DNA of 64,000 nucleotides from Deroplatys truncata (Eukaryota; Arthropoda; Insecta; Mantodea; Mantidae): positions 6,318,001 to 6,382,000 of the forward strand of contig CM060990.1 of assembly GCA_030765065.1 (NCBI GenBank). The letters are read 5' to 3'. Positions within the stretch are counted from its first letter, which is position 1, and each line of letters opens with the position of its first letter. The position numbers were made by a program, and so were the translations under genes. The notes beneath the pieces are model-generated. The model did not search any database. It was not told where the DNA came from and saw nothing but the letters and a program-made list of their open reading frames with translations. Below, piece by piece: positions 1 to 44,200 of the stretch.

Positions 1-602
1 AGAGATGTCAGTCGTGGTAGTGGTGACATAGGGAAGCAAAAGTTGCAATATAGTAGTAGTGTGCTGCTGGTACTAGTAGAGATGTCAGTGGTGTTGGTGA
101 CATAGGGAAGCAAAAGTTGCAATATAGTAGTAGTGTGCTGCTGGTACTAGTAGAGATGTCAGTGGTGTTGGTGACATAGGGAAGCAAAAGTTGCAATATA
201 GTAGTAGTGTGCTGCTGGTACTAGTAGAGATGTCAGTGGTGGTGGTGACATAGGGAAGCAAAAGTTGCAATATCGTAATAGTGTGCTGCTGGTACTAGTA
301 GAGATGTCAGTCTTGGTAGTGGTGACATAGGGAAGCAAAAGCTGCAATATCGTAGTAGTGTGCTGCTGGTACTACTAGAGATGTCAGTGGTGGTGGTGAC
401 ATAGGGAAGCAAAAGTTGCAATATTGCAGTAGTGTGCTGCTGGTACTAGTAGAGATGTCAGTGGTGGTGACATAGGGAAGCAAAAGTTGCAATATCGTAG
501 TAGTGTGCTGCTGATAGTACTAGAGATGTCAGTGGTGGTGCTGACATAGGGAAGCAAAAGTTGCAATATTGTAGTAGTGTGCTGCTGGTACTAGTAGAGA
601 TG

Positions 603-2418
603 TCAGTGGTGTTGGTGACATAGAGAAGCAAAAGTTGCAATATCGTAATAGTGTGCTGCTGGTACTAGTAGAGATGTCAGTGGTGGTGGTGACATAGGGA
701 AGCCAAAGTTGCAATATTGTAGTAGTGTGCTGCTGCTACTAGTAGAGATGTCAGTGGTGGTGGTGATATAGGGAAGCAAAAGTTGCAATATCGTAGTAGT
801 GTGCTGCTGGTACTAGTAGAGATGACAGTGGTGGTGGTGACATAGGAAAGCAAAAGTTGCAATATCGTAGTAGTGTGCTGGTGGTACTACTAGAGATGTC
901 ACTGGTGGTGGTGACATAGTGAAGCAAAAGTTGCAATATCGTAGTAGTATGCTGCTGGTACTACGAGAGATGTCAGTGGTGGTGCTCACATAGGCAAGCA
1001 AAAGTTGCAATATCGTAGTAGTGTGCTGCTGGTACTACTAGAGATGTCAGTGGTGGTGGTGACATAGGGAAGCAAAAGTTGCAATTTCGTAGTAGTGTGC
1101 TGCTGGTACAAGTAGAGATGTCAGTGGTGGTGGTGACAAAGGGAAGCAAAAGTTGCTATATTGTAGTAGTGTGCTGCTGGGACTAGTAGAGATGTCAGTG
1201 GTGGTGGTGACATGGGGAAGCAAAAGTTGCAATATCGTAATAGTGTGCTGCTGGTACTAGTAGAGATGTCAGTGGTGGTGACATAGGGAAGCCAAAGTTG
1301 CAATATTGTAGTAATGTGCTGCTGGTACTAGTAGAGATGTCAGGGGTGGTGGTAACATAGGGAAGCAAAAGTTGCAATATCGTAATAGTGTGCTGCTGGT
1401 ACTAGTAGAGATGTCAGTGGTGGTGGTGACATAGGGAAGCCAAAGTTGCAATATTGTAGTAGTGTGCTGCTGGTACTAGTAGAGATGTCAGTGGTGGTGG
1501 TGACATAGGGAAGCAAAAGTTGCAATATCGTAGTAGTGTGCTGCTGGTACTAGTAGAGATGTCAGTGGAGGTGGTGACATAGGGAAGCAAGAGTTGCAAT
1601 ATTGTAGTAGTGTGCTGCTGGGACTAGTAGAGATGTCAGTGGTAGTGGTGACATAGGGAAGCAAAAGTTGCAATATTGTAGTAGTGTGCTGCTGGTACTA
1701 ATAGTGATGTCAGTCGTGGTGGTGGTGACATAGGGTAGCAAAGGTTACAATATCGTAGTGTGCTGCTGGTACTAGTAGAGATGTCAGTGGTGGTGGTGAC
1801 ATAGGGAAGCAAAGCTGCAATATTGTAGTAGTGTGCTGCTGGTACTAATAGTGATGTCAGTCGTGAAGAAGGTGTCATAGGGTAGCAAAAGTTGCAATAT
1901 CGTAGTAGTGTGCTGCTGGTACTAATAGAGCTGTCAGTCGTGGTAGTGGTGACATAGGGAAGCAAAAGTTGCAATATCGTAGTAGTGTGCTGCTGGTACT
2001 AGTAGAGATGTCAGTGGTGGTGGTCACATAGGGAAGCAAAAGTAGCAATATCATAGTAGTGTGCTGCTGGTACTACTAGAGATGTCAGTGGTGGTGGTGA
2101 CATAGGGAAGCCAAAGTTGCAATATTGTAGTAGTGTGCTGCTGCTACTAGTAGAGATGTCAGTGGTGGTGGTGATATAGGGAAGCAAAAGTTGCAATATC
2201 GTAGTAATGTGCTGCTGGTACTAGTAGAGATGACAGTGGTGGTGGTGACATAGGAAAGCAAAAGTTGCAATATCGTAGTAGTGTGCTGGTGGTACTACTA
2301 GAGATGTCACTGGTGGTGATGACATAGGGAAGCAAAAGTTGCAATATCGTAGTAGTATGCTGCTGGTACTACGAGAGATGTCAGTGGTGGTGCTCACATA
2401 GGCAAGCAAAAGTTGCAA
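603..2418. repeat. Segmental duplication inside the minisatellite (603-1010 and 2011-2418)
   Basis: The run of units at 603-1010 recurs at 2011-2418 with an offset of 1408 bp and the same private variants: a GTGATATAGGG unit, a GATGACAGTGG unit, a GCTGGTGGTACTACTAG unit, and a GCTCACATAGGCAAG unit, in the same order. A few substitutions separate the copies. The array therefore grew partly by copying multi-unit blocks. Confidence 0.85.
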
Positions 2419-3120
2419 TATCGTAGTAGTGCGCTGCTGGTACTAATAGTGATGTGAGTAGTGGTGGAGACATAGCGTACCAAAAGTTGCAATATTGTAG
2501 TAGTGTGCTGCTGGTACTAATAGTGAAGTGAGTAGTGGTGGAGACATAGCGTACCAAAAGTTGCAATATTGTAGTAGTGTGCTGCTGGTACTAATACTGA
2601 TGTCAGTGGTGGTGGTGACATACAGTAGCAAAAGTTGCAATATCGTAGTAGTGTGCTGCTGATACTAATAGGGATGTCAGTGGTGGTGGTGACATACAGT
2701 AGCAAAAGTTGCAATATCGTAGTAGTGTGCTGCTGGTACTAATAGTGATGTCAGTGGTGGTGGAGACATAGCGTACCAAAAGTTGCAATATTGTAGTAGT
2801 GTGCTGCTGGTACTAATAGTGATGTCAGTAGTGGTGGAGACATAGCGTACCAAAAGTTGCAATATTGTAGTAGTGTGCTGCTGGTACTAATAGTGATGTC
2901 AGTGGTGGTGGTGACATACAGTAGCAAAAGTTGCAATATCGTAGTAGTGTGACGCTGATACTAATAGTGATGTCAGTGGTGGTGGTAGTGACATAAAGCA
3001 GCAAAAGTTGCAATATCGTAGTAGTGTGCTGCTGGTACTAATAGTGATGTCAGTTGTGGTGGTGGTGACATGCAGTAGCAAAAGTTGCAATATTGTAGTA
3101 GTGTGCTGCTGGTACTAATA

Positions 3121-4180
3121 GTGATGTCAGTTGTGGTGGTGGTGACATGCAGTAGCAAAAGTTGCAATATCGTAGTAGTGTGCTGCTGGTACTAATAGTG
3201 ATGTCAGTTGTGGTGGTGGTGACATGCAGTAGCAAAAGTTGCAATATCGTAGTAGTGTGCTGCTGATACTAATAGTGATGTCAGTTGTGGTGGTGGTGAC
3301 ATGCAGTAGCAAAAGTTGCAATATTGTAGTAGTGTGCTGCTGGTACTAATAGTGATGTCAGTCGTGGTGGTGACATACAGTAGCAAATGTTACAAATTCG
3401 TAGTAGTGTGGTGCTGGTACTAATAGTGATGTCAGCGGTGGTGGTGACATACAGTAGCAAATGTTACAATATCGTATTAGTGTGCTGCTGTTACTAATAG
3501 TGATGTCAGTCGTGGTGGTGGTGACATACAGTAGCAATAGTTGTAATATTGTAGTAGTGTGCTGCTGGTACTAATAGTGATGTCAGTGGTGGTGGTGACA
3601 TACAGTAGCAAACGTTACAATATCGTAGCAGTGTGCTGCTGGTACTAATAGTGATGTCAGTTGTGGTGGTGGTGACATGCAGTAGCAAAAGTTGCAATAT
3701 CGTAGTAGTGTGCTGCTGGTACTAATAGTGATGTCAGTTGTGGTGGTGGTGACATGCAGTAGCAAAAGTTGCAATATCGTAGTAGTGTGCTGCTGATACT
3801 AATAGTGATGTCAGTTGTGGTGGTGGTGACATGCAGTAGCAAAAGTTGCAATATTGTAGTAGTGTGCTGCTGGTACTAATAGTGATGTCAGTCGTGGTGG
3901 TGACATACAGTAGCAAATGTTACAAATTCGTAGTAGTGTGGTGCTGGTACTAATAGTGATGTCAGCGGTGGTGGTGACATACAGTAGCAAATGTTACAAT
4001 ATCGTATTAGTGTGCTGCTGTTACTAATAGTGATGTCAGTCGTGGTGGTGGTGACATACAGTAGCAATAGTTGTAATATTGTAGTAGTGTGCTGCTGGTA
4101 CTAATAGTGATGTCAGTGGTGGTGGTGACATACAGTAGCAAACGTTACAATATCGTAGCAGTGTGCTGCTGGTACCGATA
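3121..4180. repeat. Tandem 530-bp higher-order duplication (7 units x 2)
   Basis: Positions 3121-3650 and 3651-4180 are two back-to-back copies, about seven 74-77 bp units each, that look identical or nearly so by eye. Both carry the same odd units in the same order, including AAATGTTACAAATTCG, a unit with GTGTGGTGCTGG, and AGCAATAGTTGTAATATT. This is the clearest recent amplification step in the left block. Confidence 0.9.
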
Positions 4181-5053
4181 GTGATGTCAGTGGTGGTGGT
4201 GGTGACATACAGTAGCAAAAGTTGCAATATCGTAGTAGTGTGTTGCTGGTACTAATAGTGATGTCAGTGGTGGTGCTGACATATAGTAGCAAAAGTTGCA
4301 ATATCGTAGTAGTGTGCTGCTGGTACTAATAGTGATGTCAGTGGTGGTGGTGACATATAGTAGCAAAACTTGCAATATCGTAGTAGTGTGGTGCTGGTAC
4401 TAATAGTGATGTCAGTGGTGGTGGTGACATACAGTAGCAGATGTTACAATATCGTAGTAGTGTGCTGCTGGTACTATTAGTGATGTCAGTCGTGGTGGTG
4501 GTGACATACAGTAGCAATAGTTGCAATATTGTAGTAGTGTGCTGCTGGTACTATAGTGCTGTCAGTGGTGGTGGTGACATACAGTAGCAAAAGTTACAAT
4601 ATCGTAGCAGTGTGCTGCTGGTACCAATAGTGATGTCAGTGGTGGTGGTGGTGACATACAGTAGCAAAATTTGCAATATCGTGGTAGTGTGTTGCTGGTA
4701 CCAATTGTGATGTCAGTGGTGGTGAAATACAGTAGCAAAAGTTGCAATATTGTAGTAGTGTGCTGTTGGTACTAATAGTGATGTCAGAGGTGGTGGTGGT
4801 GGTGAGGGTGGTGGTGGTGACATACAGTAGCAAAAGTTGAAATATCGTAGTAGTGTGTTGCTGGTAACAATTGTGATGTCAGTGGTGGTGGTGGTGAAAT
4901 ACAGTAGCAAAAGTTGCAATATCGTAGTAGTGTGCTGCTGGTACTAATAGTGATGTCAGTGGTGGTGGTGACATATAGTAGCAAAAGTTGCAATATTGTA
5001 GTAGTGTGCTGCTGGTACTAATAGTGATGTCAGTGGTGGTGGTGGTGACATAC

Positions 5054-5057
5054 AGTA
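5054..5057. other. Left target-site duplication AGTA (pairs with 9248-9251)
   Basis: AGTA occurs immediately before the 5' LTR and immediately after the 3' LTR. In uninterrupted neighbouring units the same place reads ACATACAGTAGCAAAAG with a single AGTA, which supports a 4-bp staggered integration. Confidence 0.92.
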
Positions 5058-5429
5058 TGATGCAGTAATTTGTATCACAAATTACTTAAATGTAAATAAT
5101 GATTGTAATATGAATATGCATTTTTATGTGACATTGATTTGATGTTTATTGATTGTAATTATTGTTGAGAAGTAAGTTTTTAATGCCTTACTGAAACTGT
5201 CAATAATAGCGTGCAATAATGCAGCCAGTGGGTGAGCTGTTTATCATTATTGGAAACGAGGAAGTTACGTAATATTGGGTTTTTTTTCGTTGAGAACCTT
5301 CTGGAATGTTTCCCTAGAGCATATGTATTCATAATTTTCATTGGATATTAAAATAGACGCTAATGTTGGCGCGTTTTATTAGCCAATAGTAACTCAGTTA
5401 TAATCTTTAGGCATATCGGGGAGTGGGAG

Positions 5430-5463
5430 TATAAATAGAAGCTAGGTTAGAGGTAAAGTCAGT
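5430..5463 (+). promoter_or_regulatory. LTR core promoter: TATA box and initiator
   Basis: TATAAATA starts at 5430 and a TCAGT initiator places the likely +1 A at 5461, 31 bp downstream, the standard spacing for an RNA polymerase II start in insects. The same arrangement is present in the 3' LTR. The start site itself is inferred. Confidence 0.7.
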
Positions 5464-5729
5464 CAGTCGTCCAGTTCATCAAAAATCTGTGTACACTACA
5501 CGTCGTCTTCAGTCAGTCAGTTCGTCGAAAGTATTTGTACGGCAAACGCCGGGTATCGATTCACAATTTACGCGCAGCAGAATTATGAATAATCTAAAGT
5601 ATTGTAAGGTTAATTATACAAAAAGTTGAAGTACGTGGATTAAAAGTGATCAGTGAGAAGTTATTATAACAGTTTCAGTTTGGCGAGTGTTAAGATCAAT
5701 GTATAAATGTGATAGTTAACGTGTTCGAC

Positions 5730-5735
5730 AATAAA
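5730..5735 (+). terminator. LTR polyadenylation signal AATAAA
   Basis: AATAAA about 270 bp downstream of the inferred transcription start in the 5' LTR; its counterpart in the 3' LTR (8941-8946) would end the element's transcript. Confidence 0.55.
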
Positions 5736-6040
5736 ATTATAAAACAAATTTCTTCATCAGTGTTCTTTTTGGAAAAAAGATTCCTTTCCGTTTACACAAC
5801 CCTGATCAAGAGACATGTTCGACCGAGAAATAATAGCTAGCCGGAGGACAGTAAACCAAAATTAATTAAGATAACAATATCGTTCTTTCAAACGAACACT
5901 AACACTGCTGCAAATTGCTAACACCAGATGGAGCTACAAACCGAACAAATGAATGACGTCACAAGATGGCTTCACATGAAGTAAACACATATACACAAAC
6001 ATCACAAGTAACAAACATTATAAGTAATACACCCGCAAAT

Positions 6041-6060
6041 TGGCGCCCAGAACGTGGGGC
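6041..6060 (+). other. Primer-binding-site candidate (starts TGGCGCCC)
   Basis: Three bases after the 5' LTR end, the sequence TGGCGCCCAGAACGTGGGGC begins with TGG, as a site complementary to a tRNA 3' CCA end must. The TGGCGCC core is shared with many retroelement primer sites. The exact tRNA is not assigned. Confidence 0.7.
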
Positions 6061-6406
6061 AGAGTGACCAGGAAAGGAGTGAAATAACCAGGAAGGAGAG
6101 AAGGAATCAGGACGTGGAGTGAATAGACCAGTGAACTGAACTTCAAGACGCAGATTCCAGAAACAACTATAGGAACGACAGACTACGCGGATGATTGGAC
6201 ATCGTAATTCCGAGATTAAAAGGCAACAGGGGAATTCAACTACAAAACAACAAAATGACGTAGATTCATCGTAATACAACGCAGAAGCAACATATAATCT
6301 AGGAGAGAGGGGCAGAAAGCTGGACATCAAAGCAACATCAGCAGATACCATCAGAAAGGTTAGAAACGTGTGATTTTTATTCTAAAAAAAAGGGGTAAAA
6401 ATTTTA

Positions 6407-7540
6407 ATGTACCTTAGGAGCGGTAGGATAAAGAAAACAATGTCCACTAATAATACAGAAGAAATAATTATGGAGGGAGATAGTGTAACAGTTAGCTGCA
6501 ATTCAATACAGGTTACAGAAAATAACTCAAACAATGTAGTATTTGAGGGAGGAAATGTTAGTACAGAAAGTGAGAATAGAACAGCAGGAAATGTAAATTT
6601 TGATGTTAGTATGATGATGGAAATGCTGAGAAATATGAATGAGAATATGGAAAAGAATAATAGGGAATTGAGGGAAGATATGCAAAAGAATAATGAGAAA
6701 TTAGAAAAGAAAGTAGATCAAAACAGGGAAGATATGCAAAAGAATAATGAGAAATTAGAAAAATTAACTCAGAGTAATGAGAAATTAAGAGAATATATTG
6801 ATAGGAGTTTAGAACAAAAACTAGATCAGAATAAGAGAGAATTAAGGGAAGATATTGGTAAGAGCTTAGAACAAAACAGGGAAGAAATTGAAAAGAAATT
6901 TATGGAGCTAGATAGTAGTATGATGAGAATGAGAAATGAAAATCAGGAAGTAATAGCAAGTGAGATAGGAGAAATTTCAAAGAAAATGCTAGACATAAGC
7001 AGGGAAATAGGTAACAAAGAAAGTGAGGTTAATACTAAAAGTGAACATGTTGATGTAGAATGTACAGAGTTAGGTAGTAGAATGAGTAACAGTTCAAGTG
7101 AGATAAGAGAGATGAAAGAGGTTATGAATGTAGATGTGAATCAGGCGCAAGTTAATTTCAGAGGGGAGATATCAGAAATACAGAAGGAGTCAGTAATGCA
7201 GAGAAATAAATTGTACGAAGAAGTTAAAGTTTTGACTGTAAATAATCAAAAGCTAATTTCTGAAATTAACAAGTACCAAGATGTTCAAATTGAAAACTCC
7301 AGTCCAGTACAGTTTAGTACAGATTTGTCAGAGTACTCTCAAATTAAAGAGATAGTAGAAGAATTGAAAATGACAGTTGTTAAAAGATGTGTTGTTCAGG
7401 AAACTTTAGATTGTTTTCAAATGTTATCAAGGGACGAAATTTCATATGAATACAAGCGGTTATTCATGAACAAAAATTTGAAGGTTAGGATACGGCTACG
7501 AGTAATGTTTAGCCACACACAATTTGATCCAGGAGGGTAA
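6407..7540 (+). CDS. Gag-like coiled-coil protein of the LTR element (377 aa)
   Basis: The only long open frame of the element. It starts MYLRSGR, an N-terminus resembling Gag proteins of arthropod Gypsy elements, and an in-frame alternative Met follows near residue 12. After a Ser/Asn-rich lead, about residues 60-300 are very rich in Glu, Lys, Asn, Gln and Met and should form a long coiled coil. An MQKNNEKLEK segment occurs twice near residues 90 and 107. The C-terminal ~40 residues change character (basic, hydrophobic) and end in DPGG, which suggests fusion to out-of-frame or pol-derived sequence at a deletion junction. No CCHC zinc knuckle, protease, RT or integrase motif is visible. Coiled-coil assembly of a particle is inferred from family habit. 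It might still be made, because the frame is intact and the LTR promoter is preserved. Confidence 0.6.
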   Translation: MYLRSGRIKKTMSTNNTEEIIMEGDSVTVSCNSIQVTENNSNNVVFEGGNVSTESENRTAGNVNFDVSMMMEMLRNMNENMEKNNRELREDMQKNNEKLEKKVDQNREDMQKNNEKLEKLTQSNEKLREYIDRSLEQKLDQNKRELREDIGKSLEQNREEIEKKFMELDSSMMRMRNENQEVIASEIGEISKKMLDISREIGNKESEVNTKSEHVDVECTELGSRMSNSSSEIREMKEVMNVDVNQAQVNFRGEISEIQKESVMQRNKLYEEVKVLTVNNQKLISEINKYQDVQIENSSPVQFSTDLSEYSQIKEIVEELKMTVVKRCVVQETLDCFQMLSRDEISYEYKRLFMNKNLKVRIRLRVMFSHTQFDPGG

Positions 7541-8266
7541 ATAGAAATGAGATGTAAGGTAAATGCTGGATAGTTAAAGACGAAATGCAGAGCAATGTAT
7601 TGGATTGTAAGAGGGTTAAATAAATATGTACGTCATGTGAAAGGAGAAATAAAATTTTGGATATAATTAAATTAAAAAAAATAACATTTTTTTTGTAACT
7701 ATAACAGTATTTGAAAATTAAGAATGTAAAGATTGAAACTTCATATGATATTAAAGTAAAAGTACGTAAATACAATTCCAAGAGTATTGTTAAAATAAAG
7801 TACAAAATAACAAAAATGGGTAAAAATAATAATAAAAAAACAAATACTTATGTAGCAAACAGAAAAGGTGAAACATTGTCTAGATTTAAGAGATGTAAAT
7901 ATATTTGTGTAAAGGGTGAATATTTTTGGTAAATATGTTTAATAATTACAAAAAATTCTTGAATGCCTAAATTTTGTCAACAATATAAGAGAGTAAACCA
8001 TTTTGAAACAGTCATTAAATACTTCAGGGTACAGTATTTGCTATAAAAAATTTTTTTTGTGTAATGTCAGATTAATGTCTAAACACATTAAACCAGAGCC
8101 AGTAAGTAGTGGCAAGATAGAGGAAAAACATGTCGTGTGTTAAATACGTGTGAAGTGTTAAGTGAAAGTGATAGCGTGTGTTCCAAGATTTAGGAGACTA
8201 AAAACCCATTTATAAAATTTCCAAACAAGTTGTAAATATTTATAATTATGTTTCTAGTGGGGCATA
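7541..8266 (+). other. Non-coding remainder of the LTR element
   Basis: AT-rich sequence with no convincing protein match in any frame; a 73-aa Lys/Asn-rich open frame at 7711-7932 looks like chance. A short purine stretch (AGTGGGG) just before the 3' LTR is the only candidate polypurine tract. The missing pol gene would have lain here. Confidence 0.6.
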
Positions 8267-9247
8267 TGAAGCAGTAATTTGTATCACAAATTACTTAAAT
8301 GTAAATAATGATTGTAATATGAATATGCATTTTTATGTGACATTGATTTAAGATGTTTATTGATTGTAATTATTGTTGAGAAGTAACTTTTTAATGCCTT
8401 ACTGAAACTGTCAATAATAGCGTGCAATAATGCAGCGAGGGGTGAGCTGTTTATCATTATTGGAAACGAGGAAGTTACGTAATGTTGGCGTTTTTTTTCG
8501 TTGAGAACCTTCTGGAATGTTTCCCTAGAGCATATGTATTCATAATTTTCATTGGATATTAAAATAGACGCTAATGTTGGCGCGTTTTATTAGCCAATAG
8601 TAACTCAGTTATAATCTTTAGCCATATCGGGGAGTGGGAGTATAAATAGAAGCTAGGTTAGAGGTAAAGTCAGTCAGTCGTCCAGTTCATCAAAAATCTG
8701 TGTACACTACACGTCGTCTTCAGTCAGTCAGTTCGTCGAAAGTATTTGTACGGCAAACGCCGGGTATCGATTCACAATTTACGCGCAGCAGAATTATGAA
8801 TAATCTAAAGTGTTGTAAGGTTAATTATACAAAAAGTTGAAGTACGTGGATTAAAAGTGATCAGTGAGAAGTTATTATAACAGTTTCAGTTTGGCGAGTG
8901 TTAAGATCAATGTATAAATGTCATAGTTAACGTGTTCGACAATAAAATTATAAAACAAACTTCTTCATCAGTGTTCTTTTTGGATAAAAGATTCCTTTCC
9001 GTTTACACAACCCTGATCAAGAGACATGTTCGACCGAGAAATAATAGCTAGCCGGAGGACAGTAAACCAAAATTAATTAAGATAACAATATCGTTCTTTC
9101 AAACGAACACTAACACTGCTGCAAATTGCTAACACCAGATGGAGCTACAAACCGAACAAATGAATGACGTCACAAGATGGCTTCACATAAAGTAAACACA
9201 TATACACAAACATCACAAGTAATAACATTTAAAGTAATACACTCGCA
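8267..9247 (+). repeat. 3' long terminal repeat
   Basis: Second copy of 5058-6037. It begins TGAAGCAGTAATTTG and ends ACACTCGCA, then AGTA and the satellite resume. TATAAATA is at 8641, the initiator A at about 8672 and AATAAA at 8941-8946, so the regulatory set is conserved and could drive transcription outward into the minisatellite. Confidence 0.93.
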
Positions 9248-9319
9248 AGTAGCAAAAGTTGCAATATCGTAGCAGTGTACTACTGGTACTAATAGAGATG
9301 TCAGTGGTGGTGGTGGTGA

Positions 9320-12300
9320 AATACAGTAGCAAAAGTTGCAATATCGTAGTAGTGTGCTGCTGGTACAAATAGTGATGTCAGTGGTGGTGGTGACATATAG
9401 TAGCAAAAGTTGCAATGTTATAGTAGTGTGCTGCTGGTACCAATAGTGATGTCAGTGGTGGTGGTGGTGACGTACAGTAGCAAAAGTGGCAATATCGTAG
9501 TAGTGTATTGCTGGTACCAATTCTGATGTCAGTGGTGGTGGTGAATACAGTAGCAAACGTTGCAATATCGTAGTAGTGTGCTGCTGGTACTAATAGAGTT
9601 GTCAGTAGTGGTGGTGGTGAAATACAGTAGCAAAAGTTGCAATATCGTAGAAGTGTGCTGCTGGTACTAATAGTGATGTCAGTGGCGGTGGTGGTGACAT
9701 ATAGTAACAAAAGTTGCAATATTGCAGTAGTGTGCTGAGGGTACTAATAGTGATGTCAGTGGTGGTGGTGGTGGTGGTGACATACAGTAGCAAAATTTGC
9801 AATATCGTGGTAGTGTGTTGCTGGTACCAATTGTGATGTCAGTGGTGGAGGTGAAATACAGTAGCAAAAGTTGCAATGTCGTAGTAGTGTGCTGCTGGTA
9901 CTAATAGTGATGTCAGTGGTGGTGGTGGTGACATACAGTAGCAAAAGTTGCAATATTGTAGTAGTGTGCTGCTGGTACTAATAGTGATGTCAGTGGTGGT
10001 GGTGGTGGTGGTGGTGGTAACATACAGTAGCAAAAGTTAGAATATCGTAGCAGTGTGTTGCTGGTAATAATAGAGATGTCAGTGGTGGTGGTGACATATA
10101 GTAGCAAAAGTTACAATATCGTAGCAGTGTGCTGCTGGTACTAATAGCGATGTCAGTGGTGGTGGTGGTGGTGGTGACATACAGTAGAAACGTTACAACA
10201 TCATAGCAGTGTGCTGCTGGTACTAATAGCGATGTCAGTGGTGGTGGCGGTCACATACAGTAGCAAAAGTTGCAATATTGTAGTAGTGTCCTGCTGGTAC
10301 TAATAGTGATGTCAGTGGTGGTGGTGGTGGTGACATACAGTTGCAAAAGTTAGAATATCGTAGCAGTGTGTTGCTGGTAATAATAGAGATGTCAGTGGTG
10401 GTGGTGACATATAGTAGCAAAAGTTACAATATCGTAGCAGTGTGCTGCTGGTACTAATAGCGATGTCAGTGGTGGTGGTGGTGGTGACATACAGTAGAAA
10501 CGTTACAACATCATAGCAGTGTGCTGCTGGTACTAATAGCGATGTCAGTGGTGGTGGCGGTCACATACAGTAGCAAAAGTTGCAATATTGTAGTAGTGTC
10601 CTGCTGGTACTAATAGTGATGTCAGTGGTGGTGGTGGTGGTGACATACAGTTGCAAAAGTTAGAATATCGTAGCAGTGTGTTGCTGGTACTAATAGAGAT
10701 GTCAGTGATGGTGGTGGTGACATATAGTAGCAAAAGTTACAATATCGTAGCAGTGTGCTGCTAGTACTAATAGCGATGTCAGTGGTGGTGGTGACATACA
10801 GTAGCAAAAGATGCAATATCGTAGTAGTGTGCTGCTGGTACTAATAGAGATGTCAGTGGTGGTGGTGAAATACAGTAGCAAAAGTTGCAATATCGTAGTA
10901 GTGTGTTGATGGTAGTAATAGTGATGTGAGTGGTGGTGGAGACATAGCGTACCAAAGGTTGTAATATTGTAGTAGTGTGCTGCTGGTACTAATAGAGGTG
11001 TCAGTGGTGGTGGTGACATACAGTAGCAAAAGGTGCAATATCGTTGTAGTGTGCTGCTGGCACTAATAGAGATGTCAGTGTTGTGGTAACATACAGTAGC
11101 AAAAGTTACAATATCGTAGTAGGTTGCTGCTGGTACTAATTGAGATGTCAGTGGTGGTGGTGGCGACATACAGTAGCAAAAGTTACAATATCGTAGTAGT
11201 CTGCTGCTGGTACTAATTGTGATGTCAGTGGTGTTGGTGGTGGTGAAATACAGTAGAAAAGTTGCAATATCGTAGTAGTGTGTTGCTGGTACTAATAGTG
11301 ATGTGAGTGGTGGTGGAGACATAGCGTACCAAAAGTTGCAATATCGTAGTAGTGTGCTGCTGGTACTAATAGTGATGTCAGTCGTGGTGGTGGTGACATA
11401 CAGTAGCAAAAGTTGCAATATTGTAGCAGTGTGCTGTTGGTACTAATAGTGATGTCAGTCGTGGTGGTGGTGACATACAGTAGCAAACGTTGCAACATCG
11501 TAGTAGTGTGCTGTTGGTACTAATAGTGATGTCAGTCGTGGTGGTGGTGGTGGTGGTGGTGGTGACATACAGTAGCAAAAGTTGCAATATTGTAGTAGTG
11601 TGCTGCTGGTACTAATAGTGATGTCGGTGGTGGTGACATAGGGTAGCAAAAGTTGCAACATTGTAGTAGTGTGCTGTTGGTACTAATAGTGATGTCAGGC
11701 GTGGTCGTGGTGACACACAGTAACAAAAGTTGCAACATTGTAGTAGTGTGCTGCTGGTACTAATAGTGATGTCGGTGGTGGTGGTGACAGAGTAGGAAGA
11801 GTTGCAATATTGTAGTACTATGCTGCTGGTACTAATAGTGATGTCAGTCGTGGTGGTGACATAGGGTAGCAAAAGTTGCAATATTGCAGTATTGTGCTGC
11901 TGGTACTAATAGTGATGTCAGTGGTTGTGGTGGCGGTGACATGCAGTAGCAAAAGTTGCAATATTGTAGCAGTGTGCTTCTGGTACTAATGGTGATGTCA
12001 GTCGTGGTGGTGACATACAGTAGCAAAAGTTGCAATATTGTAGCAGTGTGCTGCTGGTACTAATGGTGATGTCAGTCGTGGTGGTGACATACAGTAGCAA
12101 AAGTTGCAATATTGTAGCAGTGTGCTGCTGGTACTAATGGTGATGTCAGTCGTGGTGGTGGTGACATAGGGTAGCAAAAGTTGCAATATTGTAGTAGTGT
12201 GCTGCTGGTACTAATGGTGATGTCAGTCGTGGTGGTGGTGACATAGGGTAGTAAAACTTGTAATATTGTAGTAGTGTGCTGCTGGTACTAATGGTGATGT

Positions 12301-13345
12301 CAGTCGTGGTGGTGGTGACATACAGTAGCAAAAGTTGCAATATTGTAGCAGTGTGCTGCTGGTACTAATAGTGATGTCAGTCGTGGTGGTGGTGACATAG
12401 GGTAGTTAAAGTTGCAATATTGTAGCAGTGTGCTCCTGATACTAATGGTGATGTCAGTGGTGGTGGTGGTGGTGGTGGTGACATACAGTAGCAAAAGTTG
12501 CAATATTGTAGCAGTGTGCTGCTGGTACTAATGGTGATGTCAGTGGTGGTGGTGGTGGTGGTGACATACAGTAGCAAAAGTTGCAATATTGTAGCAGTGT
12601 GCTGCTGGTACTAATGGTGATGTCAGTGGTGGTGGTGGTGAAATACAGTAGCAAAAGTTGCAATATCGTAGTAGTGTGCTGCTGGTACAAATAGTGATGT
12701 CAGTGGTGGTGGTGACATATAGTAGCAAAAGTTGCAATGTTATAGTAGTGTGCTGCTGGTACCAATAGTGATGTCAGTGGTGGTGGTGGTGACGTACAGT
12801 AGCAAAAGTGGCAATATCGTAGTAGTGTATTGCTGGTACCAATTCTGATGTCAGTGGTGGTGGTGAATACAGTAGCAAACGTTGCAATATCGTAGTAGTG
12901 TGCTGCTGGTACTAATAGAGTTGTCAGTAGTGGTGGTGGTGAAATACAGTAGCAAAAGTTGCAATATCGTAGAAGTGTGCTGCTGGTACTAATAGTGATG
13001 TCAGTGGCGGTGGTGGTGACATATAGTAACAAAAGTTGCAATGTTATAGTAGTGTGCTGCTGGTACCAATAGTGATGTCAGTGGTGGTGGTGGTGACGTA
13101 CAGTAGCAAAAGTGGCAATATCGTAGTAGTGTATTGCTGGTACCAATTCTGATGTCAGTGGTGGTGGTGAATACAGTAGCAAACGTTGCAATATCGTAGT
13201 AGTGTGCTGCTGGTACTAATAGAGTTGTCAGTAGTGGTGGTGGTGAAATACAGTAGCAAAAGTTGCAATATCGTAGAAGTGTGCTGCTGGTACTAATAGT
13301 GATGTCAGTGGCGGTGGTGGTGACATATAGTAACAAAAGTTGCAA
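9320..13345. repeat. Block duplicated three times in the array (9320-9740, 12640-13040, 13030-13345)
   Basis: A run of units with diagnostic variants (GACGTACAGTAGC, AATTCTGATG, AGAGTTGTCAGTAG, TCGTAGAAGTGTGC) occurs starting 72 bp right of the 3' LTR and again about 3322 bp and about 3620 bp downstream. The second and third copies are tandem with a period near 301-304 bp. Confidence 0.85.
10062..10700. repeat. Tandem ~310-bp higher-order duplication
   Basis: Four consecutive units at about 10062-10380 recur at about 10376-10690 with the same private variants (CAGTAGAAACGTTACAACATCATAG; GGTGGCGGTCACATAC; GTGTCCTGCTGG). The copies differ mainly in GGT number. Confidence 0.85.
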
Positions 13346-14110
13346 TATTGCAGTAGTGTGCTGCTGGTACTAATAGTGATGTCGGTGGTGGTGGTGACAT
13401 AGAGTAGGAAGAGTTGCAATATTGTAGTACTATGCTGCTGGTACTAATAGTGATGTCAGTCGTGGTGGTGACATAGGGTAGCAAAAGTTGCAATATTGCA
13501 GTATTGTGCTGCTGGTACTAATAGTGATGTCAGTGGTTGTGGTGGCGGTGACATGCAGTAGCAAAAGTTGCAATATTGTAGCAGTGTGCTTCTGGTACTA
13601 ATGGTGATGTCAGTCGTGGTGGTGACATACAGGAGCAAAAGTTGCAATATTGTAGCAGTGTGCTGCTGGTACTAATGGTGATGTCAGTCGTGGTGGTGGT
13701 GACATAGGGTAGTAAAAGTTGCAATATTGTAGCATTGTGCTGCTGGTACTAATGGTGATGTCAGTCGTGGTGGTGACATACAGTAGCAAAAGTTGCAATA
13801 TTGTAGCAGTGTGCTGCTGGTACTAATGGTGATGTCAGTCGTGGTGGTGGTGACATAGGGTAGCAAAAGTTGCAATATTGTAGTAGTGTGCTGCTGGTAC
13901 TAATGGTGATGTCAGTCGTGGTGGTGGTGACATAGGGTAGTAAAACTTGTAATATTGTAGTAGTGTGCTGCTGGTACTAATGGTGATGTCAGTCGTGGTG
14001 GTGGTGACATACAGTAACAAAAGTTGCAATATTGTAGCAGTGTGCTGCTGGTACTAATGGTGATGTCAGTCGTGGTGGTGGTGACATAGGGTAGTTAAAG
14101 TTGCAATATT
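11760..14110. repeat. Segmental duplication of about 650 bp (11760-12420 and 13375-14110)
   Basis: Order-preserving runs of variant units (AGAGTAGGAAGAG, TTGCAGTATTGTG, GTGCTTCTGG, AGTAAAACTTGTAATATT, AGTTAAAGTTGC) appear at both places. The offset is about 1612 bp at the left end and 1689 bp at the right, so one unit was gained or lost after the copy was made. Confidence 0.8.
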
Positions 14111-15681
14111 GTAGCAAAGTGCTCCTGATACTAATGGTGATGTCGGTGGTGGTGGTGGTGGTGGTGACATACAGTAGCAAAAGTTGCAATATTGTAGCAG
14201 TGTGCTGCTGGTACTAATGGTGATGTCAGTGGTGGTGGTGGTGGTGGTGGTGGTAGTGACATACAGTAGCAAAAGTTGCAATATTGTAGCAGTGTGCTGC
14301 TGGTACTAATGGTGATGTCAGTGGTGGTGGTGGTGACATACAGTAGCAAATGTTGCAATATTGTAGTACTGTGCTGCTGGTACTAATAGTAATGTCCGTG
14401 GTGGTGGTGTCGGTGACATACAGTAGCAAAAGTTGCAATATTGTAGCAGCGTGCTGCTGGTACTAATAGTGATGTCAGTGGTGGTAGTGACATAGAGTAG
14501 CAAAAGTTGCAATATTGTAGTAGTGTGCTGCTGGTACTAATAGTGATGTCAGTGGTGGTGGTGGTGGTGGTGGTGGTGGTGGTGGTGGTGGCGGCGGTGA
14601 CATACAGTAGCAAAAGTTGCAACATTGTAGCAGTGTGCTGCTGGTACTAATAGTGATGTCAGTGGTGGTGGTGGCGGTGACATACAGTAGCAAAAGTTGC
14701 AATATTGTAGCAGTGTGCTGCTGGTACTAATGGTGATGTCAGTGGTGGTGGTGACATAGGGTAGCAAAAGTTGCAATATTGTAGTAGTGTGCTGCTGGTA
14801 CTAGTAGTGATGTCAGTGGTGGTGGTGGTGGTGGTGGTGGTGGTGGCGGCGGTGACATACAGTAGCAAAAGTTGCAATATTGTAGCAGTGTGCTGCTGGT
14901 ACTAATGGTGATGTCAGTGGTGGTGGTGACATAGGGTAGCAAAAGTTGCAATATTGTAGTAGTGTGCTGCTGGTACTAATAGTGATGCAAGTGGAGGTGG
15001 TGGCGGTGACATACAGTAGCAAAAGTTGCAATATTGTAGCAGTGTGCTGCTGGTACTAATGGTGATGTCAGTGGTGGTGGTGGTGGTGGTGGTGGAGACA
15101 TAGGGTAGCAAACGTTGCAATATTGTAGTAGTGTGCTGCTGGTACTAATGGTGATGTCAGTGGTGGTGGTGGTGGTGGAGACATAGGGTAGGAAACGTTG
15201 CAATATTGTAGTAGTGTGCTGCTGGTACTAATGGTGATGTCAGTGGTGGTGGTGGTGGTGGAGACATAGGGTAGCAAAAGTTGCCATATTGTAGCAGTGT
15301 GCTGCTGGTACTAATGGTGATGTCAGTGGTGGTGGTGGTGGTGGTGGTGGTGGTGGTGGTGGTGGTGGTGGAGACATAGGGTAGCAAAAGTTGCAATATT
15401 GTAGTAGTGTGCTGATGGTACTAATAGAGATGTCAGTGGTGGTGGTGACATACAGTAGCAAAAGATGCAATATTGTAGTAGTGTGCTGCTGGTACTAATG
15501 GTGATGTCAGTGGTGGTGGTGGTGGTGGTGGTGGTGGTGGTGGTGGTGGAGACATAGGGTAGCAAAAGTTGCAATATTGTAGTAGTGTGCTGATGGTACT
15601 AATAGAGATGTCAGTGGTGGTGGTGACATACAGTAGCAAAAGATGCAATATTGTAGTAGTGTGCTGCTGGTACTAATAGAG

Positions 15682-15834
15682 AAGCAACAGCTGGTGGTGA
15701 TGATGATTGTGGTAAAAGTATAGTAGCAGAATAAGAGTGTCGTGGTGGTGGAACAAATAGCGCTGCCATCTGTCGTGGTGGTCGCTGTACCATCACTGGA
15801 AGTAAGAGCTCGTGGTGGTAATGATGGCGGTGGG
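15682..15834. repeat. Transitional units between the 74-bp and 112-bp satellites
   Basis: The 74-bp pattern stops after ACTAATAGAGAAG. The next 41 bp already contain CAACAGCTGGTGGTG, part of the 112-bp unit. From GTAGCAGAATAAG at 15723 to the next GTAGCAG at 15835 is exactly 112 bp, but this unit is strongly diverged. It is the boundary form between the two families. Confidence 0.75.
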
Positions 15835-17844
15835 GTAGCAGAAGTTGCAGCAGCATAGCAATGTGGTGGTGTTGATAGTGCTGTCAATATTCGTGGTGGT
15901 AGCTGTACCATAACTGGAAGAAACAGCTGGTGGTGGTAGTGGTGGGGTAGCAGAAGTTGCAGCAGTATAGTAATGTGGTGGTGTTGATAGTGTTGTCAAC
16001 ATTCATGGTGGTAGCTGTACCATAACTGGAAGTAACAGCTGGTGGTGGTAGTGGTGGGGTAGCAGAAGTTGCAGCAGTATAGTAATGTGGTGGTGTTGAT
16101 AGTGTTGTCAACATTCATGGTGGTAGCTGTACCATAACTGGAAGTAACAGCTGGTGGTGGTAGTGGTGGGGTAGCAGAAGATGCAACAGCAAAGTAATGT
16201 GGTGGTGTTGATAGTGCTGTCGACATTCGTGGTGGTAGCTGTATCATAACTGGAAGTAACAGCTGGTGGTGGTAGTGGTGGGGTAGCAGAAGATGCAACA
16301 GCAAAGTAATGTGGTGGTGTTGATAGTGCTGTCAACATTCGTGGTGGTAGCTGTATCATAACTGGAAGTAACAGCTGGTGGTGGTAGTGGTGGGGTAGCA
16401 GAAGATGCAACAGCAAAGTAATGTGGTGGTGTTGATAGTGCTGTCAACATTCGTGGTGGTAGCTGTATCATAACTGGAAGTAACAGCTGGTGGTGGTAGT
16501 GGTGGGGTAGCAGAAGATGCAACAGCAAAGTAATGTGGTGGTGTTGATAGTGCTGTCAACATTCGTGGTGGTAGCTGTATCATAACTGGAAGTAACAGCT
16601 GGTGGTGGTAGTGGTGGGGTAGCAGAAGATGCAACAGCAAAGTAATGTGGTGGTGTTGATAGTGCTGTCAACATTCGTGGTGGTAGCTGTATCATAACTG
16701 GAAGTAACAGCTGGTGGTGGTAGTGGTGGGGTAGCAGAAGATGCAACAGCAAAGTAATGTGGTGGTGTTGATAGTGCTGTCAACATTCGTGGTGGTAGCT
16801 GTATCATAACTGGAAGTAACAGCTGGTGGTGGTAGTGGTGGGGTAGCAGAAGATGCAACAGCAAAGTAATGTGGTGGTGTTGATAGTGCTGTCAACATTC
16901 GTGGTGGTAGCTGTATCATAACTGGAAGTAACAGCTGGTGGTGGTAGTGGTGGGGTAGCAGAAGTTGCAGCAGTATAGTAATGTGGTGGTGTTGATAGTG
17001 TTGTCAACATTCATGGTGGTAGCTGTACCATAACTGGAAGTAACAGCTGGTGGTGGTAGTGGTGGGGTAGCAGAAGATGCAACAGCAAAGTAATGTGGTG
17101 GTGTTGATAGTGTTGTCAACATTCATGGTGGTAGCTGTATCATAACTGGAAGTAACAGCTGGTGGTGGTAGTGGTGGGGTAGCAGAAGTTGCAGCAGTAT
17201 AGTAATGTGGTGGTGTTGATAGTGTTGTCAACATTCATGGTGGTAGCTGTACCATAACTGGAAGTAACAGCTGGTGGTGGTAGTGGTGGGGTAGCAGAAG
17301 ATGCAACAGCAAAGTAATGTGGTGGTGTTGATAGTGTTGTCAACATTCATGGTGGTAGCTGTACCATAACTGGAAGTAACAGCTGGTGGTGGTAGTGGTG
17401 GGGTAGCAGAAGATGCAACAGCAAAGTAATGTGGTGGTGTTGATAGTGCTGTCAACATTCGTGGTGGTAGCTGTATCATAACTGGAAGTAACAGCTGGTG
17501 GTGGTAGTGGTGGGGTAGCAGACGATGCAACAGCAAAGTAATGTGGTGGTGTTGATAGTGTTGTCAACATTCATGGTGGTAGCTGTACCATAACTGGAAG
17601 TAACAGCTGGTGGTGGTAGTGGTGGGGTAGCAGAAGATGCAACAGCAAAGTAATGTGGTGGTGTTGATAGTGCTGTCAACATTCGTGGTGGTAGCTGTAT
17701 CATAACTGGAAGTAACAGCTGGTGGTGGTAGTGGTGGGGTAGCAGACGATGCAACAGTATAGTAATGTGGTGGTGTTGATAGTGCTGTCAACATTCGTGG
17801 TGGTAGCTGTATCATAACTGGAAGTAACAGCTGGTGGTGGTAGG
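15723..17844. repeat. 112-bp satellite, about 19 units
   Basis: Tandem units of 112 bp starting GTAGCAGAAG. Two main variants occur: one with TTGCAGCAGTATAG, TTGTCAACATTCATGG and TGTACCATAAC; the other with ATGCAACAGCAAAG, GCTGTCAACATTCGTGG and TGTATCATAAC. Between about 16150 and 16960 the second type is repeated nearly unchanged; further right the types mix. The first part of the unit aligns with the 74-bp unit (GTAGCA-AAGTTGCA, AGTA-TGTG, TAGTG-TGTCA), and the extra part contains TAACTGGAAGTAACAGC. The array ends abruptly after GGTGGTGGTAGGGGG. Confidence 0.95.
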
Positions 17845-18349
17845 GGGATAGCAGTAATAGCAGTATTTCGTGTGTATGCTTTATTCAAGGAGCTCTATTT
17901 GTTTCGCCCGGAGCTATACTTGACTCTCCAGTGCATCGGTTAATATTCAGTAATCAGGTCGTTGTGTACTAAACCCATGTGCTTGAAGGACCATAGGATG
18001 CGTGTGTTGAAAGGAAACTGGGACAACCACTTTCGCCCTGTCCGAGCGAGAACGTGTAAAGGATAGCCATTGGAATCTCGGACATACGCACTCATCCGTA
18101 AACATAATCTGGTAACCAGGCTATGGAGATTTCTGATTCATAGATAGAAAACTCCTTGTTTTCATCAAGGGGTTTGAGATAGGATTTCCTGATAGATAAT
18201 TGTTAGCTGTTAAAATTCTACCGGAAGCAGTAATACTATTGCTTATTACACTCGCATCGCTCGCGGCTACTGTTATTGCTAAACAATGCCACAGTACCTT
18301 ACTAATGCTGCAACATAAGGTGGCCCCCTAGAAATTCCGAGGTTTCTAA
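17845..18349. other. Unique-looking AT-rich DNA
   Basis: About 500 bp with no open frame, tandem repeat or recognisable element. It starts just after the satellite edge and ends at the target duplication of a SINE. Confidence 0.6.
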
Positions 18350-18494
18350 CAAATTTTAGTTTAAAAGGTAGAATCAGATGACTGAAAAATTCAATGCCAT
18401 AGCATTGAATTTTTCAGTCATCTGATTCTACCTTTCCAACCCTGTCCAACACACGGCTTGTGTGAAAGAACAATTAATTCCAAATTTTAGTTTA
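18350..18494 (+). mobile_element. SINE fragment with inverted 5' part (foldback) and 14-bp target duplication
   Basis: The 14-bp sequence CAAATTTTAGTTTA is present at 18350-18363 and 18481-18494. Between them, a 34-bp arm (18364-18397) is followed by a 4-nt loop and its perfect reverse complement (18402-18435), then a 45-bp tail ending GTGAAAGAACAATTAATTC. Right arm plus tail match the 3' half of the complete SINE at 45691-45833. This is a retroposed 3' SINE end whose 5' part was replaced by an inverted copy of its own middle. The arms abut the target duplication exactly. Confidence 0.88.
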
Positions 18495-41204: not shown

Positions 41205-44200
41205 TCTTTATAATCAACCTATCACATTTAACTCCGGCTGTCCATTCTCCATTGGTATACACGCGGTATATGCGCTCATACGGCCGAGCTACAGTTGTTA
41301 ACCAGATTGCTTTCTCCCAGCGTTTTGTGTTTACAGGAGACTAAACTTCGATGCAAGACAAGTTTTTCATATTCTGGTTTTATTCCGGTGCGCCTTGACC
41401 TACCACCGGAACCTGGTAGTCCTGCACATGGGGTGTCATGCTCATTATTCCTGACATTTTTTTCCAGCCTCTGGTACTTACCACTACCCTGCAAGCTGTT
41501 GCTGTTACCTTGATTTTACCTGGCTTTTCTTTTACCCTTTGTTCCGTATATCTACCGCCTTGTTCTCCTTTCGCTATTACGGAATTTGCAGATCTAGTAT
41601 CCCAGCTCCCAGCGCCTTACCTTATGCTGGGAGACTTTAATGCGCACCACCCTCTTTGGGGTTCACCTCGGGCTTGCGCAAAGGGGAACCATCTTGCTGA
41701 ATTTTTCATACAGACCAACCTTTCTCTTCTCAACACAGGTGAAGCTACTTTCGTTTCCGATTCTACCGGCACTTTCTCTCATCTGGACTTATGTTTGCTC
41801 AGCACAGCTCGCACATCGTTTTCAGTGGTCGTCTCTGATACCTTTTCTAGCGATCATTTTCCTTGCCTGTCAGCTTGCTTTCACACACGGTCCTATCGGC
41901 ACGTGTACCCACTTGGCAAATTCACAGAGCGAACTGGATTATTTATTCCAGCTTAGCTGTTTTATACGACCGCCCGTTCTCCGATGTTGACCGGATAGTG
42001 GATCACTTTACTTCGGTCGTTCTTTCCGCTGCCGAACGTGCTATCCCTCGTTCGTCTTCCCAACCGAAGCGTTTACCGGTCCCCTGGTGGACCGACGAAT
42101 GTCGCGCGGCAGTCCGTGTGCAGAGGGCTGCCCTTCGGGTGTTTCGCCGCCACCCTACGTTTGATTATTTGGTAACTTTCAAGCACATGCGCGCCAGGGC
42201 CCGCAGAATTATACAGGTAAGTAAGAGGACATCCTCGATCCATTTTGTGGAGTCTTTTAATCACTCCACTCCATCTGTCGTTTGGGACAAGCTTCGTCGT
42301 GTGGCTAGCAAAGTGTCACCGCTCACAATTCTTGGTCTTAGGATTAATAATACCACCATCGTTTATTCTAGAGCGGTTGCTGACACGCTGGGCGCTGCTT
42401 TTACCGGAGCTACCGGCTCATCTCATTAACACCGGAATTTTTGTCCATACAGAACCGGGTTGAATCCCACGAACTCTTTTTCCTCTTCTAACCGCGAGTG
42501 TTATACCCTTTTCACCATGTCGGAGCTAGCTCATCCAGGCCCTCAGCTCCTGGGCCGGATGGTGTTCACCTATTAATACTGCAGCACCTTTCTTCGGGTG
42601 GTAAAAGTTTTCTCTTGCAGGTCCATAACCGCATCTGGCGAACCGCTACATTCCCGTCAGCTTGGCATCAGACCGCCATCGTCATAATTTTAAAACCTGG
42701 CAAAGATCACCATCTACCCTCCAGTTATCAGCCCATCTTTCTCGCCAGTTGCATATGCAAGGTGATGGAGCGCATGATCCACGGGCACTTGACATGGTGG
42801 CTTGAATCTCAAGATTTGCTGTATAACGTCCAATGTGGTTTTCGTCGCTTCCGCTCAACGGTCGACCACCGGGTCTCGTTATCTACACACATCATGGACG
42901 CTTTTCTACAGAAAAGTCACACGGTCGCTGTCTTCTTTGACCCCGAGAAAGCGTATGACACTTGCTGGAGGTAGGGTATTCTTCGTACTCTCCATAATTG
43001 GGGCATTTGTGGTCGTCTGCCCCTTTTTATTCGGGAGTTCATAAAGGATAGAGTCTTTGGCGTACGCGTGGGTTCGGTTTTATCCCGTGTTTTTACTCAA
43101 GAGAACGGAGTACCGCAGGGTCCGTCCTCAGCGTCACACTATTTGCTATTGCAATCAATCCTATTGTCAATTGCGTTTCACCTATGTTTCGTCTTCATTG
43201 TTCGTGGATGATTTCACTATTTATTGCAGTTCTCGGCGCACTTGTCTCTTAGAACGCCGCCTCCAACTGTGTCTTGACCGTCTCTTCACTTGGAGTGTTC
43301 TCTGCCGGGAAAAGTCTGCGTTAAGTTCTGGCGCCGTACAGCGTTTCTTTCGCCTTCTCTACGTCTCGGTCCAGATGGTCTTCCTTTCGCAAAAGAGCCG
43401 AAAATTTTGGGATTGATTTTTGACAGGAAGCTTACCTGGTGTTCCCAAATCTCATATATGAAGGTATGGTGTGAACGTTCTCTGAAGTTTTACATGTTTT
43501 AAGTGGCACTTCATGGGGAGCTGATCGTACTGTTCTTCTAAGATTGTATCGCTCTCTAGTCCGTTCAAAACTTGATTAAGGCTGCATTGTTTATTCCTCT
43601 GCTCCACCATCGATATTGAATCGCTTCAGTCCTATACATCACCGTGGTATCCGGTTGAGTATTGGCGCTTTTCATAAGAGCCCAGTCATCAGCCTGAGTG
43701 CGGAAGCTGCTGTGCCCCACTATCTTATCGCCGTGATGTTGTTCTTTGACGTTTCGCCTACAGACTCTCTAGTCCGCGTGGACATCCGTCTTTTACTCAG
43801 TTTTTTAACGATTCCTTGGACCGTCAGTACTCGTCGAACTCCCTGGCCTTACGTCCTCCTGGTGTTCGTTTTCGCTTACTCCTTCGGCTGCTGGACGTCA
43901 CCTTACCGGCAACATTTCCGATAGGGGAAACAGGTTCCCCCCCCCCCCATGGCTCAAACCCGACGCCGTCAATCTGGAGTTGTTCTCCCTGCCGAAACGA
44001 CGACGCCAGCATCTGTTATTTGCTCGGCCTTTTTAGAAATTAAAGAGCAGTTTGAATGCTGTGATTTTATCTCCACTGATGGTTCTAACGACGCTCGGGG
44101 AATAGAATGCGCTTTTATCCATGGTCGCCAGTTTTACATTTCGGCTTTTAACGCAGTGTTATAATTTTACAGCCGAGCTGTTTGGCATTTACCAGGCTCT

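What the first reader, a model, noticed from the sequence alone, without database searches (positions are those of the whole stretch)
15664..17844. A 112-bp satellite appears to have been born from the 74-bp minisatellite, with the transitional unit preserved
The 112-bp unit aligns with the 74-bp unit in its first part and has about 38 extra bp (around TAACTGGAAGTAACAGC). A strongly diverged 112-bp unit sits exactly at the junction (15723-15834). Snapshots of a satellite changing period within one contiguous array are rarely seen.
Basis: partly seen in the sequence, partly recalled or inferred. Interest (0 to 1): 0.7.

Follow-up and report, generated by a model that had tools for sequence, protein, structure and literature searches.

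The report
Related tandem repeats with worn junction
Two tandem repeats that look related, with 74- and 112-base units, lie side by side at one place in a large genome; the odd unit between them is best read as an old, worn edge unit beside a recombination scar, a known kind of thing, and not as a repeat caught in the act of changing length.

Summary
The arrays are real: 74-bp units up to about 15680, 112-type units 15808-17843, and a diverged unit J (15690-15807, 118 bp) between them. About 70 bp of the two units are probably homologous (72-78% identity; better than dinucleotide and triplet shuffles), but a triplet-rich tract elsewhere in the genome aligns about as well with the 74 core as the consensus 112 unit does, so part of the likeness is shared texture. 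The 112 unit also has about 38 bp (segment C) not found in the 74-bp arrays; its pattern occurs 18 times in the 4.29-Gb assembly, all here.

'Born from the 74-bp array with the transitional unit preserved' is not shown. J already carries C nearly intact (34/37), so it is not caught between periods. In core letters J is suggestively intermediate (P under 0.007 to 0.24, by alignment). Nearby 74-bp units are at most slightly closer to the 112 unit. The boundary is a truncation: a 74-bp unit broken in its tail meets the end of a C segment. The left end of the 74-bp array looks decayed too. Gain or loss of C stays open.

Best reading: two subfamilies of one single-locus minisatellite, meeting at a recombination scar beside an early-branching, unhomogenised edge unit.

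The parts
1..5057 (+). 74-bp minisatellite, left part (continues left of the window to G000:C16:6310824)
5058..9247 (+). LTR retrotransposon-like insertion splitting the 74-bp array; LTRs 5058-6037 and 8267-9247; 4-bp repeats AGTA at 5054-5057 and 9248-9251
   Evidence: 967 identities, 14 mismatches over 981 aligned LTR columns, 5 gaps
9248..15680 (+). 74-bp minisatellite, right part; last unit breaks off in its tail at about 15680
15681..15692 (+). scar: last 12 bases of a C segment (11 of 12), joined to the truncated 74-bp unit
   Evidence: one of two places with at least 11 of 12 outside 15835-17843 in the window; only 2.6 bits on its own
15690..15807 (+). J, diverged three-part unit, 118 bp; C part 34/37, A part hardly recognisable
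15808..15925 (+). K, mildly diverged 112-type unit with 6 extra bases
15926..17843 (+). homogeneous 112-bp array; mean pairwise identity 96.7% over 17 full units (parsed 15891-17794; 2 partial of 19 rows left out)
16573..16600 (+). one example of segment C (28 bp between two GGT runs), seen only in 112-type units
17844..17880 (+). possible decayed remnant at the right end of the 112-bp array (weak)
   Evidence: P 0.04 to 0.10

Best explanation
One compound minisatellite of about 25 kb at one locus, built of two subfamilies. Both share a two-part core (A+B) with a GTG run; the 112-type unit also carries C between two GGT runs. Shown: likeness of the core, C seen only in 112-type units, one locus for both motifs, block duplications in the 74 array, a truncated join, diverged units at the junction. 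Supported less firmly: a decayed unit at the left end. Inferred: unequal exchange or conversion and slippage homogenise each subfamily in its interior; units at edges and at the boundary escape this and keep old letters or gather new ones; the present boundary formed when recombination joined the tail of a 74-bp unit to the tail of a C segment. J is an early-branching, unhomogenised three-part edge unit: perhaps intermediate in core letters, not in architecture. Whether C was gained by the 112 type or lost from the 74 type (for example by deletion between its flanking GGT runs) is not settled. No function is indicated.
For: Core likeness. No C match in the 74 arrays. C in J at E 4.4e-6, 34/37. 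Truncation scar in register. Decay at the far left end of the 74 array: L029:2722-2815, P 0.003 and 0.017 against two 74 consensus units, 0.008 against 112; the 122 bases beyond show nothing (P 0.22-0.94). Divergence falls inward: J 67-78% to 112 units depending on alignment, K 88-95%, core mean 96.7%. Unequal exchange: 375/375 identical bases between 9307-9681 and 12629-13003, and other block repeats. One locus: the 74 motif occurs 128 times in the genome with up to 1 mismatch and all 128 lie in L029 plus the window; C pattern 18 forward, 0 reverse, all here.
Against: J's 74-like letters (5 to 8 of 13 to 15 diagnostic columns) exceed simulated decay clearly in one alignment (reached by 0 of 150 at each of three divergences), marginally in two (6-8 of 150 and 6-15 of 150) and not in a fourth (7.5%, 20% and 24% of 160): pure edge decay of a modern 112 unit is therefore doubtful. 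The eleven 74-bp units next to the junction have the highest of six bin means (21.9 against 18.0-20.5; 8 of 139 blocks as high). Right-end decay is weak (P 0.04-0.10). The scar scores only 2.6 bits by itself.
Confidence: 0.6

Rival explanations
1. One reading: the 112-bp repeat was born here from an edge 74-bp unit that gained ~38 bp, and J is the preserved intermediate.
For: Shared core and private segment; J has an excess of 74-like core letters in most alignments and has bases where 112 units have a 3-base gap, two of three matching the 74 unit; the last eleven 74 units are slightly closer to 112.
Against: J already has C at 34/37; the junction is a truncation; the excess is not significant in one alignment; the last six units and the overall trend show no closeness.
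Confidence: 0.21
2. Reverse direction: the three-part unit is older and 74-bp units arose by losing C through deletion between its flanking GGT runs, then expanded.
For: C is flanked by GTGGTGGT on both sides (sequence); a C remnant lies left of J, so 112-type DNA once reached further left.
Against: No C match in either 74 array in the window or in the 10 kb that holds the array's left end.
Confidence: 0.2
3. Two arrays derived independently from triplet-rich DNA, similar through shared GTN triplets, not descent.
For: Both cores have 3-bp periodicity; segments of a 5.6-kb triplet tract match the 74 core as well as the consensus 112 unit does in 3 to 31 of 97 cases.
Against: Triplet shuffles seldom reach the score (P 0.0003-0.002); the score of the second 112 variant is reached by 0, 0, 3 and 0 of 97 segments; best profile scores 17-31 bits against about 10 for the tract; same locus, strand and order of parts.
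Confidence: 0.12
4. The junction is an assembly artefact joining two loci.
For: Tandem arrays are prone to misassembly (general knowledge); reads were not available.
Against: Both motifs are confined to this locus, and C register and graded divergence run across the join.
Confidence: 0.04

Closest known systems
[quoted passage not shown] passages seen)
   Same: Diverged first monomers at the boundary (82.2% and 68.4%) and, in the other zone, a chimeric join of truncated subunits.
   Different: Thousands of minor-satellite arrays with conserved boundaries; here one locus and one boundary, and the two repeats share a core.
Decay of monomers at satellite array ends (PMC5139131, passages seen; McAllister and Werren 1999 seen only as a citation)
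   Same: Edge units more diverged than interior ones, attributed there to missing homogenisation by unequal crossover.
   Different: Here one edge abuts a related array, not unrelated DNA. That paper's own junctions were abrupt, without notable decay.
1.688 satellite length subfamilies of Drosophila, ~360 and ~190 bp (PMC7642928, passages seen)
   Same: Related subfamilies differing by an internal segment.
   Different: Multi-locus satellite; those passages describe a deletion in the short form; here the direction is unknown.

Membership tests
Minisatellite / tandem repeat locus | Head-to-tail units of tens of bp at a locus | tested here: met
   about 2 kb found at one place in 4.29 Gb (the tool warns that counts can be lower bounds)
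Decayed array edge | Divergence of units rises towards the array end | tested here: met
   J, K, core at the left edge of the 112 array; left end of the 74 array P 0.003-0.017; right end of the 112 array weak, P 0.04-0.10
Chimeric transition zone between two repeats | Truncated unit of one joined to truncated unit of the other | tested here: met
Chimeric transition zone between two repeats | No foreign sequence in the zone | tested here: inconclusive
   J's A part is not significantly similar to either unit (P 0.11 and 0.08)
Transitional unit (74 to 112) | Excess of 74-state letters over decay from 112 | tested here: inconclusive
   8 of 15 (reached by 0 of 150 simulations), 6 of 13 (4-5%; 4-10%), 5 of 15 (8-24%), by alignment
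Higher-order repeat (74 and 112 as multiples of a 37-bp monomer) | Internal parts A, B, C similar to each other | tested here: not met
   no significant similarity in the comparisons made

The most novel reading that the evidence does not exclude
A single-locus minisatellite that founded a longer-period daughter array in place: a segment of other origin (C, without the triplet texture of the rest) entered a GTG run of one edge unit, the new unit spread as its own array, and J, with C intact but core letters between the two types, is an early descendant of that founder left outside homogenisation.
Probability: 0.24. Interest if true: 0.45.

Novelty: new member of a known kind. Interest (0 to 1): 0.25.

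Why it matters
It is a compact, single-locus example in which two repeat lengths, their boundary and the outer edges can be read in one 25-kb stretch. That makes it usable for testing how edge units escape homogenisation and how repeat length changes. The processes themselves are already described.

Tried and rejected
37-bp common monomer (74 = 2x37, 112 = 3x37): rejected, parts A, B and C do not significantly resemble each other. C as a duplicated 74-bp tail: not supported (P 0.34 against the tail, 0.73 against the whole unit). C copied from the flanks or the LTR element: no significant match. C as a hairpin element with AGCTGT/ACAGCT ends: the whole 112 unit folds no better than shuffles (z -1.35, 22 of 200 as good; C alone was not folded), and J does not keep the matching ends. 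RNA families: none at gathering threshold. Viral contigs (both motifs) and bacterial/archaeal genome contigs (74 motif only): no exact match. The C1 hit of the 74 query is a degenerate triplet tract, not an array of either unit. Literature searches. A BLAST listing of block duplications printed nothing; direct alignments replaced it.

Full report
WHERE. The window is G000:C16:6318001-6382000 of a 4.29-Gb assembly in 818 contigs. Size and LINE-like and LTR-like pieces suggest an animal, perhaps an insect; that is inference, no call names it. The 74-bp array begins left of the window at L029:2824, i.e. C16:6310824, so the compound locus is about 25 kb and ends at window 17843.

OBSERVATION. Tandem Repeats Finder gives 74-bp arrays from base 14 to 5057 and from 9248 to about 15680 in overlapping rows, and a 112-bp array at 15773-17843. 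Mean pairwise identity is 90.3% (67 units, left), 90.7% (81 units, right) and 96.7% (17 units, 112). Between 15690 and 15925 lie two unusual units: J (15690-15807, 118 bp, 67-78% to 112 units depending on alignment) and K (15808-15925, 118 bp, 88-95%).

ARE THE TWO UNITS RELATED? Probably. With the GTG run removed, the 74 core aligns with the 112 consensus at z 5.2 (strict; at least one of 2000 dinucleotide shuffles scored higher) and 6.6 (lenient; none did). Against triplet-keeping shuffles P is 0.0003-0.002 in 16 settings. A profile of the 74 core matches 18 places in the 112 array, best 17.0 bits, against at most 5.8 in reversed controls; the 112 profile matches the 74 arrays at up to 31.2 bits against 8.0 reversed. 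But both cores have 3-bp periodicity (P 0.0017 and 0.0003), which C lacks (P 0.39). A 5.6-kb triplet tract on contig C1, found by a 74 query at 70% identity, is a hard control: of 97 overlapping segments, 10, 3, 31 and 15 (four settings) reach the score of the consensus 112 unit, and 0, 0, 3 and 0 that of the second variant. In profile terms the tract reaches at most 9.8 (74 core) and 10.2 bits (112). Descent from one core is likely; part of the signal is shared texture, and whether the tract itself is a distant relative was not settled.

THE EXTRA SEGMENT. C (28 bp between two GGT runs; about 38 bp with one run) has no significant match to the 74 unit, to parts A or B, to the rest of the window or to the 20 kb on the left. 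In the whole assembly a 32-base pattern with up to 3 mismatches occurs 18 times, all in this array, 0 reverse, 0 in the backward control; J's copy is not among them. The 74 motif occurs 128 times with up to 1 mismatch, 0 reverse (100 places listed), and a local count in L029 plus the window gives 128, so all lie here. The DNA search with a 74 query listed 36 matches, 35 here and 1 on C1, but it missed the left array, so that list is partial.

IS J TRANSITIONAL? Diagnostic columns are those where both unit types have different letters. J has the 74 letter in 8, 6 and 6 (three alignments with K; 6, 5 and 5 with the 112 letter) or 5 (alignment without K; 8 with the 112 letter). Decay of a 112 unit was simulated at three divergences with the same pipeline. 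For 8: 0 of 150 at each. For the first 6: 8, 7 and 6 of 150. For the second 6: 6, 11 and 15 of 150. For 5: 7.5%, 20% and 24% of 160. So the core of J is suggestively intermediate, with the strength set by the alignment. That fits an early-branching unit that escaped later changes. It does not make J an intermediate in length or plan: its C is 34/37 intact, while its A part is not significantly similar to either unit (P 0.11 and 0.08).

IS THE BIRTHPLACE HERE? If an edge 74-bp unit founded the 112 array recently, nearby 74 units should be closest to it. Over 149 units there is no overall trend (best-of-two score, Spearman -0.05, P 0.54; the two variants -0.19, P 0.02, and -0.05, P 0.57; negative means units near the junction score lower). 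The last six units rank 34 of 144 blocks; the last eleven have the highest of six bin means (21.9 against 18.0-20.5) and rank 8 of 139 blocks; the very last unit scores low (14.5) and the closest single unit is at 11626. This is weak at best.

THE JOIN. The last 74-bp unit follows its neighbours up to AATAGAGA at about 15680 and continues as the end of a C segment (15681-15692, 11 of 12 letters), in register with J. Outside 15835-17843 only this place and J's own C reach 11 of 12 in the window; seven others reach 10. By itself the match is 2.6 bits. It reads as a truncated unit joined to a truncated unit, as after recombination.

EDGES AS CONTROL. The left end of the 74 array, L029:2722-2815, resembles the repeats (P 0.003 and 0.017 against two 74 consensus units, 0.008 against 112), with nothing in the 122 bases beyond (P 0.22-0.94); the right end of the 112 array is weaker, P 0.04-0.10. 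Within the 74 array, block repeats (375/375 between 9307-9681 and 12629-13003; others 300 of 304 and 309 of 315 columns, gaps included) show past exchange. Edge units escaping such exchange is the explanation given for array-end decay in PMC5139131 (passages; that paper's own junctions were abrupt). The Tribolium madens transition zones have similar anatomy: first monomers at 82.2% and 68.4% in one zone, a chimeric join in the other (PMC13081366, passages).

VERDICT. Two subfamilies of one minisatellite, meeting at a recombination scar beside an early-branching edge unit. Direction needs an outgroup.

Noticed in passing
5058-9247: LTR retrotransposon-like insertion inside the 74-bp array, 4-bp repeat AGTA on both sides, LTRs 98.6% identical over aligned columns; one open frame of 384 codons with only a weak apolipoprotein-type Pfam match below the curated cut-off, so perhaps non-autonomous.
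   Followed up: partly
18364-18435: 34-bp inverted repeat with a 4-base loop, just right of the arrays (fold -38.1 kcal/mol, z -17.5).
   Followed up: partly
L031:1437-7062 (contig C1): 5.6-kb degenerate GTA/GTG triplet tract resembling the texture of the A+B core; possible type of source DNA for such minisatellites.
   Followed up: partly
41420-42971: Pieces of a LINE-like element: Exo_endo_phos_2 and RVT_1 matches in separate frames.
   Followed up: no
13500-15700: GTG runs (four or more) are longer towards the junction: mean 19.3 bases, up to 45, against 12.4, up to 15, before 5060.
   Followed up: no
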